64,000 nucleotides of DNA from assembly GCA_944376295.1 (NCBI GenBank), contig CALWCE010000001.1, positions 62,001-126,000 of the forward strand, in the 5' to 3' direction. A model generated the notes under the pieces. It did not search any database, was not told the DNA's origin, and saw nothing but the letters and a program-made list of their open reading frames with translations. A program made the position numbers and the translations under genes. This document shows positions 18,200-61,578 of this stretch, one piece after another (position 1 is the first letter of the stretch; the number at the start of each line of letters is the position of its first letter). The stretch comes from an uncultured Clostridia bacterium (lineage in GTDB: Bacteria > Bacillota > Clostridia > Christensenellales > Borkfalkiaceae).

Positions 18200-18231
18200 A
18201 TATTATGTCTGACATAATACTATTCTAATAT
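18200..18231. repeat. Short palindromic repeat family C, copy 1
   Basis: TATTATGTCTGACATAATA (a near-perfect palindrome) followed by CTATTCTAATATG. It differs from copy 3 at one position over the 26-base core. It lies in the rsfS / nadD gap. Confidence 0.8.
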
Positions 18232-20204: not shown

Positions 20205-20234
20205 TATTATGTCTGACACAATACTATGCTAATC
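20205..20234. repeat. Short palindromic repeat family C, copy 2
   Basis: TATTATGTCTGACACAATAC followed by TATGCTAATC, just after the stop of the four-span membrane protein. One core mismatch to copy 3. Confidence 0.8.
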
Positions 20235-58330: not shown

Positions 58331-60097
58331 TCACTCCACCGTGACGCTCTTGGCAAGATTGCGCGGCTTATCGGGATCATGCCCCAGCAGCACCGCCGTC
58401 TCATAGGCAAGAAGCTGTAGCGGAACAGCGGTACAAAGGGGCGAAAAGACCGCCTCACACGAAGGCAATAGCAAGACGTCCTCGTCGGGCAGCACCCCCT
58501 CGGTACAAGAGGGAAGCGTCGTTATGAGGAACACCCGCGCCCTGCGCGAGCGCACTTCGTGAACGGCGTTCATCGTCTTTTCCGCAAGGCGCGCATCCGA
58601 GAGAAGGGCGACGACGGGCGCATCCTCCCCCACAAGAGCGAGCGTGCCGTGTTTGAGCTCGCCCGCGGGATAACCTTCGCTCGCAAGATAGCTCACCTCT
58701 TTGAGTTTGAGGCTGCCTTCGATCGCGGCGGCGTAGTCCGCGCCCCGCCCGATGAAATAGACGCTCTTCTGTTGGCACAAAGCGCGCGCCCACTCTTTGA
58801 CTTTTTCGGAGCGGGAGAGCGCATCTTCGCAAAGGGCGGGAAAGGGCGCAAGAGAGGGAGCGCTCCTGCCCTTCAGAGCGGCGAGCGCGGCGGCAAGGGA
58901 ATAGAGCGAGGCAAGCTGCGCGCAAAAACTCTTGGTCGCGGCGACGGCGGTTTCTCTGCCCGCGTGCGTCAAAAGCACGAGATCGGCAAGGGCGGTCAGC
59001 GAGGAATAGGGAACATTGGTGAGCGCGAGCACCTTAGCGCCCCGCTCCTTTGCAAGCGCCGCCGCTGAGAGGGTATCCGCCGTCTCCCCGCTCTGGCTGA
59101 CGGCAATGACGAGCGTCCCCTTCGGCACGATGGGATCGCGGTAGCGGTACTCGCTCGCGATATCCACTTCGACGGGCACGCGGGAGAGCGCCTCGATGGC
59201 ATACTTTGCTGCGACGCCGCTGTGATAAGCCGTCCCACAGGCGACGATTTGGATATAGTATGTCTGACATAATACTATGCTAATGTCGGAAAATTGATGG
59301 TCTGCTGTCAAATCAACGATGGAATTTGCGATCGCGGCGGGATCTTCGGCAATTTCTTTGCGCATATAGTGCGGATAGCCGCCCTTTCCCCCATCCCCCT
59401 CGACTTTGCCGAATTCGATGGGTTTCCCCTTCCATTCGTGCAGCTCTTCGTCAAAGAGGCGCACGTTATCCTCGGTGAGAAGAGCAAACCCGCCCTCTTT
59501 AAGCGAATACACCTCGTTTGCAAGAGGCGCAATCGCAGGAAGATCGCTCGTAAGAACGCTCCCCTCTCCCCGCCCCACGAGGAGCGGGCTTCCTCGCCGC
59601 GCCGCAACGATGACACGCACCCCTTCCGCAAGCACGGCGATCGAATAGGAGCCTTTGAGCTGCCGCACCGCCTCTTGCACCGCGCGCAACAGATCGCCCC
59701 GATACGCCGCCGCGACGAGATGGGCAATGACTTCGCTGTCCGTTTCGGAAGAAAAGACTTCCCCGCGCGCTTCACATTCGGCGCGTAGGAGAGCAGCATT
59801 CTCGATGATGCCGTTATGCACGACCGCCACGCCGCCGTATCGGTGCGGGTGGGCGTTGCGTTCGCTCGGTTCCCCGTGCGTCGCCCAGCGGGTGTGCGCG
59901 ATGCCGAGACAGCCCGAAAGTTTTTCCGCTTCGGAGGCAAGCGCCTCCACCCGCCCCTTGCGTTTGACGACGGCGAGCTTTTGTCCCAAAACGGCGATGC
60001 CCGCCGAATCGTACCCGCGGTACTCGAGCCGTTTGAGCCCCTCGAGCAAAACAGGCGCCGCCCGCCCCTTGCCCGCATACCCTACGATCCCGCACAT
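58331..60097 (-). CDS. glmS: Glutamine--fructose-6-phosphate aminotransferase GlmS, with repeat-encoded insert
   Basis: Makes glucosamine 6-phosphate for cell-wall precursors. ATG 60097 after GGAGGG gives MCGIVGYAGKG with catalytic Cys2; 588 residues. The glutaminase domain (RLEYRGYDSAGIAV, THGEPSERNAHPH) is followed by two SIS sugar-isomerase domains (IVACGTAYHSGVAAKYAIEA, SQSGETADTL, and VYFIGRGADYAAAIEGSLKL), ending DKPRNLAKSVTVE. Between the domains, residues about 271-281 (ISIVLCQTYYI) are encoded by a copy of palindromic repeat C. Net length there is only a few residues above that of other GlmS. The start overlaps glmM by 16 bases. No glmS ribozyme precedes it. Confidence 0.95.
   Translation of the reverse strand: MCGIVGYAGKGRAAPVLLEGLKRLEYRGYDSAGIAVLGQKLAVVKRKGRVEALASEAEKLSGCLGIAHTRWATHGEPSERNAHPHRYGGVAVVHNGIIENAALLRAECEARGEVFSSETDSEVIAHLVAAAYRGDLLRAVQEAVRQLKGSYSIAVLAEGVRVIVAARRGSPLLVGRGEGSVLTSDLPAIAPLANEVYSLKEGGFALLTEDNVRLFDEELHEWKGKPIEFGKVEGDGGKGGYPHYMRKEIAEDPAAIANSIVDLTADHQFSDISIVLCQTYYIQIVACGTAYHSGVAAKYAIEALSRVPVEVDIASEYRYRDPIVPKGTLVIAVSQSGETADTLSAAALAKERGAKVLALTNVPYSSLTALADLVLLTHAGRETAVAATKSFCAQLASLYSLAAALAALKGRSAPSLAPFPALCEDALSRSEKVKEWARALCQQKSVYFIGRGADYAAAIEGSLKLKEVSYLASEGYPAGELKHGTLALVGEDAPVVALLSDARLAEKTMNAVHEVRSRRARVFLITTLPSCTEGVLPDEDVLLLPSCEAVFSPLCTAVPLQLLAYETAVLLGHDPDKPRNLAKSVTVE
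59256..59284. repeat. Short palindromic repeat family C, copy 3, inside glmS
   Basis: AGTATGTCTGACATAATACT followed by ATGCTAAT. The 26-base core differs from copies 1 and 2 at one base each. It is translated in frame on the minus strand. Confidence 0.85.
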
Positions 60098-61532: not shown

Positions 61533-61561
61533 ATTATAGTGTTATAATCATATTATGTCAC
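61533..61561 (-). promoter_or_regulatory. Possible glmM-glmS promoter, -35 inside repeat C copy 4
   Basis: GTGACA, 17 bases, TATAAT on the minus strand. The -35 hexamer is part of the palindromic repeat. Confidence 0.45.
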
Positions 61562-61578
61562 GCATAGTACTATGCAAA
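61551..61578. repeat. Short palindromic repeat family C, copy 4 (diverged)
   Basis: TATTATGTCACGCATAGTAC followed by TATGCAAA. It keeps the TATTATGTC and CTATGC parts, but the core right arm is changed. Confidence 0.6.

What the first reader, a model, noticed from the sequence alone, without database searches (positions are those of the whole stretch)
59256..59284. Palindromic repeat translated in frame inside glmS
The 26-base core of repeat C (one base different from intergenic copies at 18.2 and 20.2 kb) occurs inside glmS and is read as ISIVLCQTYY between the glutaminase and first isomerase domains. The frame stays open and the overall length is only a few residues above other GlmS proteins, so the element may have replaced native linker residues rather than simply adding to them. 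It resembles the palindromic elements of Rickettsia that invade coding genes.
Basis: partly seen in the sequence, partly recalled or inferred. Interest (0 to 1): 0.7.

Follow-up and report, generated by a model that had tools for sequence, protein, structure and literature searches.

The report
Terminus-pointing DNA site inside glmS
The palindrome inside glmS does not look like a stray insertion: it is one of many matching DNA sites that sit at fixed places in genes of this bacterial group, mostly point toward the spot where chromosome copying ends, and are probably bound by a membrane-anchored protein.

Summary
The repeat is real: a 28-bp site, TTWGCATAGTAYTATGYSWGACATARTA, at 59256-59283 (-) in glmS, with three more copies in the window. 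The reading as a recent strain-specific insertion fails. The site is at the same codons in 17 of 23 same-genus glmS copies examined; the 16 others that carry it are 57-65% identical to this GlmS. It shows codon-level constraint and adds no residues. miaA, dxs, spoIIIAE and other genes also carry it at fixed places.

60 of 61 genus genomes have matches. No site was found on the dnaA contig in 6 of 6 genomes. In the one genome mapped, sites concentrate near the terminus. They are polar: 56 of 59 scored sites point toward the XerS-like recombinase gene, beside which a dif-like site was seen in 3 of 3 genomes inspected.

Likely binder: a PadR winged-helix protein with a long charged middle and four predicted transmembrane segments, in 34 of 37 genus genomes. 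The 13-bp core, though not the full 28-mer, lies upstream of its gene in 33 of 34; control 6 of 347.

I infer a new membrane-tethered terminus-organising system. Binding and function are untested.

The parts
59256..59283 (-). 28-bp polar site inside glmS (TTAGCATAGTATTATGTCAGACATACTA), read as ISIVLCQTYY between glutaminase and isomerase domains
   Evidence: 1 mismatch to consensus; same position in 17 of 23 same-genus glmS copies
58331..60097 (-). glmS, glutamine--fructose-6-phosphate transaminase, 588 aa, host gene of the site
   Evidence: NCBIfam TIGR01135 682.8 bits over cut-off 418; PDB homologues
61551..61578 (-). perfect (0 mismatch) intergenic copy, 10 bp after the stop of a glycerol-kinase-like gene and upstream of a glmM-like gene (names by eye)
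18201..18228 (-). intergenic copy (1 mismatch) between a nadD-like and a rsfS-like gene (names by eye); the same gene pair carries a copy in G007, G017 and G024
20205..20232 (-). intergenic copy (1 mismatch) between convergent genes; the same gene pair carries a copy in G017

Best explanation
The element is a DNA address, not an insertion. It is one of roughly 15-30 asymmetric 28-bp sites per genome that lie at conserved places, mostly point toward dif on both replichores, and are kept by selection even where they run through coding sequence such as glmS. Shown: the sequence, positional conservation, codon-level constraint in glmS, polarity, concentration near the terminus in G007, and the 13-bp core of the site upstream of one particular gene in nearly every genus genome. 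Inferred: the product of that gene, a PadR winged-helix protein with a long charged, probably coiled-coil middle and four C-terminal transmembrane segments, binds the sites and represses its own gene. Further inferred: by binding many sites it tethers or organises the terminus region at the membrane, in coordination with chromosome-dimer resolution or division, as RocS or MatP do in other bacteria.
For: Genus-wide: 60 of 61 genomes have matches, reversed control 0. Fixed orthologous places: glmS, miaA, dxs 6 of 6 genomes; spoIIIAE and a PBP-like gene 5 of 6. Codon constraint in 17 glmS copies: Val GTA 17/17 (elsewhere in the gene 24/299), Leu CTA/TTA 17/17 (13/503), Cys TGT 15/17 (6/67) (Fisher p 3e-17, 4e-24, 4e-10, not corrected for relatedness; the more conservative permutation over four columns gives p 0.02). 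Polarity: 56 of 59 scored sites in 10 genomes of 3 genera point to the XerS-like gene, p 1e-13; following transcription alone would predict about 78% (221 of 283 genes co-oriented on G007:C1), p 4e-4. Terminus: cumulative GC skew maximum at 119.2 kb and dif-like site at 109.2 kb of G007:C1; 17 of 24 G007 loci (counted by hand) on that contig, 19% of the genome, p 7e-8; no site on the dnaA contig in 6 of 6 genomes, contig lengths not all known. Binder: PF03551 PadR E 2e-19; a C-terminal model hits 34 of 37 genus genomes and, among 24 genomes of other families, only one weakly at 8e-4; core <=1 mismatch within 200 bp upstream in 33 of 34 against 6 of 347 control genes; four TM segments in 31 of 31 and PadR-region conservation 0.92 against 0.33 for the middle; PadR-domain scores are mostly higher in motif-bearing genera of the family.
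Against: No binding experiment. The upstream copies at the PadR gene match the full 28-mer poorly (best 4-7 mismatches in 31 of 31); only the 13-bp core is strong, so they need not be the same kind of site. G002 (95% complete) has 20 motif matches but no PadR hit; G094 has motif matches without a hit. G111 (another genus, 63 matches) breaks polarity at 2 of 8 scored sites, and its PadR gene has only a 3-mismatch core upstream. Motif-free genomes of the family also have a diverged PadR domain in 9 of 14. G007:C13 holds two sites 6 kb apart pointing opposite ways. Four glmS orthologues of the genus lack the site (G003, G019, G021, G022). In G000 the sites lie on 9 of 30 contigs that make up about half of the assembly, a weaker concentration than in G007. 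The glmS codon permutation is only p 0.02. The genomes used are drafts in many contigs, and one 388-kb contig was mapped in full.
Confidence: 0.6

Rival explanations
1. Replication fork trap: the sites are Ter-type polar fork barriers and the PadR protein is a terminator protein (Tus and RTP genes are also autoregulated by a ter site).
For: Polar, asymmetric, mostly pointing to dif; core of the site upstream of the candidate's own gene, as for Tus and RTP (PMC10331603 passages); ter sites are non-palindromic and point toward dif (PMC6549158 passages).
Against: 17 loci on one 388-kb contig of G007 is denser than known fork traps (recalled); the protein is a predicted integral membrane protein, which neither Tus nor RTP is (recalled); no RTP homologue in 6 of 6 genomes.
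Confidence: 0.2
2. Ordinary PadR regulon: the sites are operators that regulate the genes next to them.
For: A PadR-type protein with the core upstream of its own gene; 7 of 139 sites overlap a start codon in sense and others lie in 5' regions.
Against: 32 of 139 sites lie mid-gene in sense, and many intergenic copies follow stop codons or lie between convergent genes; host genes are unrelated housekeeping genes; polarity toward the recombinase/dif.
Confidence: 0.1
3. The sites serve another terminus protein, for example an SMC unloader comparable to XerD in B. subtilis, and the PadR gene only happens to be regulated through a similar core.
For: Concentration near dif and a XerS-like recombinase; XerD unloads SMC at the terminus in B. 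subtilis (PMC12322038 passages); upstream copies at the PadR gene match the full site poorly.
Against: The motif is unlike the dif-like site beside the recombinase; PadR-domain similarity mostly tracks motif presence.
Confidence: 0.1
4. Mobile palindromic element (RPE-, REP- or MITE-like) that inserted into genes and was tolerated.
For: Dispersed, palindromic core, in-frame copies in coding genes; one tandem copy in miaA adds 7 residues.
Against: Orthologous fixed positions over deep divergence, little or no added length, codon constraint, polarity, no exact match in viral contigs.
Confidence: 0.03
5. RNA-level hairpin element acting in mRNAs.
For: Palindromic, and 45 of 49 in-gene sites are sense to the gene.
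Against: C at position 17 (43 of 139) breaks the stem in the sense strand; the upstream copy at the PadR gene reads antisense to it in most genomes (25 of 31 best matches, weakly defined).
Confidence: 0.03

Closest known systems
MatP/matS (Ter macrodomain of E. coli)
   Same: Multi-copy site-specific DNA motif of the terminus region bound by one dedicated protein (MatP role: PMC6549158 passages)
   Different: matS is a short symmetric site (recalled); here the site is 28 bp, asymmetric and polar, and the candidate protein is PadR-type and predicted membrane-integral
Tus/Ter and RTP/Ter fork traps
   Same: Asymmetric sites pointing toward dif; protein gene with a site in its promoter area
   Different: No RTP homologue in 6 of 6 genomes (Tus not searched); unrelated PadR protein with membrane segments; many more sites; fork arrest untested
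RocS of Streptococcus and RacA of Bacillus
   Same: N-terminal winged helix and central coiled coil, and for RocS a C-terminal membrane anchor (PMC11500499 passages)
   Different: PadR-type domain; four predicted TM segments instead of an amphipathic helix; sequence-specific sites around the terminus
PadR-family transcriptional regulators
   Same: PF03551 domain E 2e-19 and PDB homologues of about 100 aligned residues
   Different: Large extra middle and membrane region; many sites lie inside genes or after stop codons
Rickettsia palindromic elements (RPE)
   Same: Dispersed palindromic repeat read in frame inside genes
   Different: Little or no length gain, old fixed positions, polar with respect to the terminus

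Membership tests
Rickettsia palindromic element / inserted palindrome | Adds residues relative to homologues lacking it | tested here: not met
   glmS, dxs and BaiN-like copies give no or about one extra residue against PDB homologues; the four genus glmS orthologues without the site have no gap across the seven site codons and are 0, 1, 2 and 4 residues shorter just before it; G000 miaA has +7 aa from a tandem copy
Rickettsia palindromic element / inserted palindrome | Variable presence at orthologous positions among close relatives | tested here: not met
   glmS, miaA, dxs sites in 6 of 6 genomes; glmS 17 of 23 copies in the genus
Ter site (Tus or RTP fork trap) | Asymmetric sites oriented toward dif | tested here: met
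   56 of 59 scored sites point to the recombinase gene; dif-like site seen beside it in G000, G007, G010
Ter site (Tus or RTP fork trap) | RTP protein present | tested here: not met
   PF02334: 0 of 6 genomes at E <= 1
Ter site (Tus or RTP fork trap) | Tus protein present | not tested
   not searched
Ter site (Tus or RTP fork trap) | Polar arrest of replication forks | not testable with these tools
   needs an experiment
MatP/matS | Motif concentrated in the terminus region and absent near the origin | tested here: inconclusive
   G007: 17 of 24 loci on 19% of the genome; no site on dnaA contigs in 6 of 6; in G000 sites are on contigs making up about half of the assembly
MatP/matS | MatP protein binds the motif | not tested
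   MatP was not searched; the site does not resemble matS (recalled)
PadR family (candidate binder) | PadR winged-helix domain above curated cut-off | tested here: met
   69.6 bits against cut-off 27
PadR family (candidate binder) | Operator in its own upstream region | tested here: inconclusive
   core <=1 mismatch upstream in 33 of 34, full 28-mer 4-7 mismatches; binding untested
RocS-like membrane tether | wHTH, coiled coil and membrane anchor | tested here: inconclusive
   wHTH shown; four hydrophobic segments in 31 of 31 by a hydropathy window; coiled coil inferred from charged proline-free runs of 182-316 residues in five proteins

The most novel reading that the evidence does not exclude
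Bacteria of this family (Borkfalkiaceae, a name I recall from the organism names in the record titles) have a previously undescribed terminus-organising system: a membrane-embedded PadR/coiled-coil protein that reads tens of polar 28-bp addresses pointing to dif and ties the terminus half of the chromosome to the membrane. The addresses are written through the codons of housekeeping genes, so that the amino-acid sequences of GlmS, DXS, MiaA and others are bent to preserve them.
Probability: 0.5. Interest if true: 0.88.

Novelty: new variant of a known kind. Interest (0 to 1): 0.8.

Why it matters
[quoted passage not shown] A further, unrelated design with a membrane-anchored protein and polar sites would show that terminus organisation evolved repeatedly, and would offer a system where polarity, membrane tethering and dimer resolution can be tested together. 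It would also be a case of a chromosome-organisation signal shaping the protein sequences of core enzymes, easily mistaken for an inserted repeat.

Tried and rejected
Strain-specific insertion: rejected by the glmS comparison. RNA hairpin: C at position 17 breaks the sense stem. Motif as dif: rejected, a different palindromic dif-like site lies beside the recombinase. Motif from phages: the viral-contig scan for the exact pattern found 0. RTP: 0 of 6. A 71-aa ribbon-helix-helix-like protein (name by eye) next to a site in G010 and G018 was considered as binder; Pfam gave no family and only these two of six genomes showed it beside a site. My first dif search with remembered dif sequences found nothing convincing. 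A paper search combining PadR family, operator, ATGT, ACAT and palindrom returned 0, so the resemblance of the half-site to PadR operators (TATG...CATA) is recalled only. Four diverged PadR loci (L422-L425) were not parsed by my script. In one search the PBP copy was scored antisense; its direction is ambiguous. My first glmS script read the wrong strand and was replaced.

Full report
Observation. glmS (58331-60097, minus strand) contains TTAGCATAGTATTATGTCAGACATACTA at 59256-59283, read in frame as part of SDISIVLCQTYYIQIVACG. Three further copies lie in the window at 18201, 20205 and 61551, all on the minus strand; the last is a perfect match. In the own genome a 19-mer core pattern gives 31 matches per strand at <=3 mismatches against 3 for the reversed control.

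The repeat is not a recent insertion. I compared 23 glmS copies from 23 genomes of the genus (G001 and G011 gave no hit spanning the gene that was fetched) and seven from other families of the order. The element is at the same codons, as GTACTATGTCAGACAGAGTAC (VLCQTEY), GTACTATGTCACGCAGAGTAC (VLCHAEY) or close variants, in 17 of 23; the 16 besides our own are 57-65% identical to our GlmS. Six lack it: G003, G019, G021 and G022 (56-58% identical) and the G020 and G023 hits, which are 46%-identical copies. None of the seven from other families carries it. The four site-less orthologues have no gap across the seven site codons and are 0, 1, 2 and 4 residues shorter just before it; against the E. 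coli enzyme (organism recalled) the region is 6 residues shorter, not longer. A perfect palindrome GTACTATGTCAGACATAGTAC would read an in-frame TAG in this frame; the glmS copies have GAG, GAA, AAG, TAC or TAT there. The Val, Leu and Cys codons of the site end in A or T with two exceptions, although conserved columns elsewhere have 76% GC at third positions: GTA 17/17 against 24/299, CTA/TTA 17/17 against 13/503, TGT 15/17 against 6/67; a permutation over the four conserved columns, which include a Tyr column without bias, gives p 0.02, and Fisher tests that ignore relatedness give far smaller values.

The family of sites. In six genomes (G000, G007, G010, G017, G018, G024) 139 sites at <=6 mismatches were read from 106 stretches fetched around matches; the reversed control gave 0. 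Counts per genome are 15 to 30. By my simple gene caller 90 are intergenic, 45 in genes in sense (32 mid-gene, 7 at a start codon, 6 at an end) and 4 antisense. Mid-gene copies use mainly two frames (20 and 11 of 32), giving LHSTMSDII and VLCQTEY peptides. Orthologous genes carry the site: glmS, miaA and dxs in 6 of 6 genomes, spoIIIAE and a PBP-like gene in 5 of 6; intergenic copies likewise, such as at the 3' end of a typA-like gene and at the start of a thrS-like gene in 5 of 6 (typA, thrS and PBP are names by eye; in G018 the thrS-like case has the other orientation). Names for miaA, dxs, the BaiN/HI0933-like flavoprotein and spoIIIAE rest. Within the genus 60 of 61 genomes have pattern matches, 2 to 34 over both strands, some sites counted in both directions, reversed control 0; the one without is 63% complete. 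In a draw from the family, 30 of 81 genomes and 8 of 18 genera have matches; in other families of the order 0 of 16 genomes.

Polarity and location. The site is asymmetric: an outer arm TTWGCATAG on one side of the palindrome TAYTATGYSWGACATARTA. 99 of 139 sites have an unambiguous direction by the arm rule. On the 388-kb contig C1 of G007 the cumulative GC skew peaks at 119.2 kb, and a palindromic dif-like site beside a 358-aa tyrosine recombinase, best NCBIfam match XerS (202 bits, below its cut-off 267), lies at 109.2 kb. Unambiguous sites left of it point right (5) and those right of it point left (9); one further + site lies about 70 bp beyond dif and was not scored. In G000 contig C5 two sites left and one right of the dif-like site at 55.0 kb also point to it. 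On the contigs that carry the recombinase in ten genomes of three genera, 56 of 59 scored sites point to it. For G007 and G000 only unambiguous sites were used; for the other eight I took the direction with fewer mismatches in the listings, leaving out two tied pairs and three sites within 2 kb of the gene; for G111 only 49 of 63 matches were listed. The three exceptions are a PBP-gene copy in G018 and two sites in G111. In G007:C1 221 of 283 genes (78%) are co-oriented with replication, so 56 of 59 exceeds a bias that merely follows genes (p 4e-4). The upstream copies at the PadR gene in G000, G007, G010 and G018 have the direction of the other sites on their contigs although that gene runs the other way, but their directions are weak (4-6 mismatches) and of the genomes printed only the G018 copy passes the arm rule. 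One conflict exists off the scored contigs: G007:C13 has two sites 6 kb apart pointing opposite ways. 17 of 24 G007 loci, counted by me, fall on C1, 19% of the genome (p 7e-8). In G000 the sites lie on 9 of 30 contigs summing to about half of the assembly. No site at <=3 mismatches is on the dnaA contig in 6 of 6 genomes; the lengths of those contigs were not all seen.

Candidate binding protein. One gene has a site upstream in antisense in G000, G010 and G018. Its product has an N-terminal PadR domain (PF03551, E 2e-19), a long charged middle with proline-free runs of 182-316 residues in five proteins checked, and four hydrophobic segments in 31 of 31 proteins. A C-terminal profile finds it once in 34 of 37 genus genomes, with one weak hit (8e-4) among 24 genomes of other families; G011 has an N-terminal piece, G002 has neither, and G045 was not retested. 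The core TATGTCWGACATA is present within 200 bp upstream with <=1 mismatch in 31 of 31 and in 2 of 3 genomes added later, the third having 2 mismatches; G011 also has it. The best match mostly lies 52-71 bp before the start, in G001, G043 and G051 about 140-170 bp. 6 of 347 genes on G007:C1 meet the same test. The full 28-mer at these places has 4-7 mismatches. The PadR region is the most conserved part (0.92 against 0.18, 0.33 and 0.66 for tail, middle and C-terminus). Outside the genus, 13 of 14 motif-bearing genomes tested have the PadR domain (12 at E 4.4e-63 or better, G112 at 7e-52; G094 none), and 9 of 14 motif-free genomes have a more diverged one (2e-27 to 6e-58). Within 220 bp upstream, cores with <=2 mismatches occur in 9 of 12 motif-bearing genomes with upstream sequence (G111, G132 and G137 fail) and in 2 of 5 motif-free ones that my script could parse; I measured no chance level for that looser test.

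Interpretation. These facts fit a site-specific chromosome-organisation system better than a mobile repeat. Known terminus systems share single features: Tus and RTP genes are autoregulated by a ter site in the promoter area (PMC10331603, passages); [quoted passage not shown] RocS joins a DNA-binding domain, a coiled coil and a membrane-binding helix in chromosome segregation (PMC11500499, passages). No RTP was found. XerD unloads SMC at the terminus of B. subtilis (PMC12322038, passages), so an SMC role is possible. Searches (listings only) showed no paper that by title or abstract start links PadR proteins to the terminus or to a membrane-anchored nucleoid protein; most subscription papers are not held. 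Tethering of the terminus to the membrane is my inference, not shown.

Noticed in passing
L396 (G000:C6:90400-94000): 836-aa PadR-domain protein with charged middle and four TM segments, candidate binder of the sites; not in the window
   Followed up: yes
G000:C5:55039-55074 (L091); G007:C1:109182-109217 (L199): dif-like palindrome (TAACTATTCGCAAAA...TTTT type) just upstream of a XerS-like recombinase gene; a similar one in G010:C5 near 47455
   Followed up: partly
L088 (G000:C3:118989-119037): miaA of this genome carries two tandem copies 21 bp apart, adding 7 residues relative to homologues
   Followed up: partly
L084 (G000:C1:2419), L094 (G000:C6:122973), L146 (G007:C13:1887): Some sites supply or overlap the start codon of a gene (ATGTCAGAC = MSD), including a purB-like and a tsaD-like gene (names by eye)
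   Followed up: no
G111 (genus g34): 63 pattern matches, the most of any genome, mostly on one strand of several contigs in the part that was listed
   Followed up: no
G002: 95% complete genome with 20 motif matches but no PadR hit in two searches; missing from the assembly or a real loss
   Followed up: partly
G145:C1:592442-593503 (L437): XerS-like recombinase reading with one in-frame TAA
   Followed up: no
G003, G005, G006, G007, G014, G019, G024: A second, about 44-49% identical glmS-like gene besides the better-matching glmS
   Followed up: no
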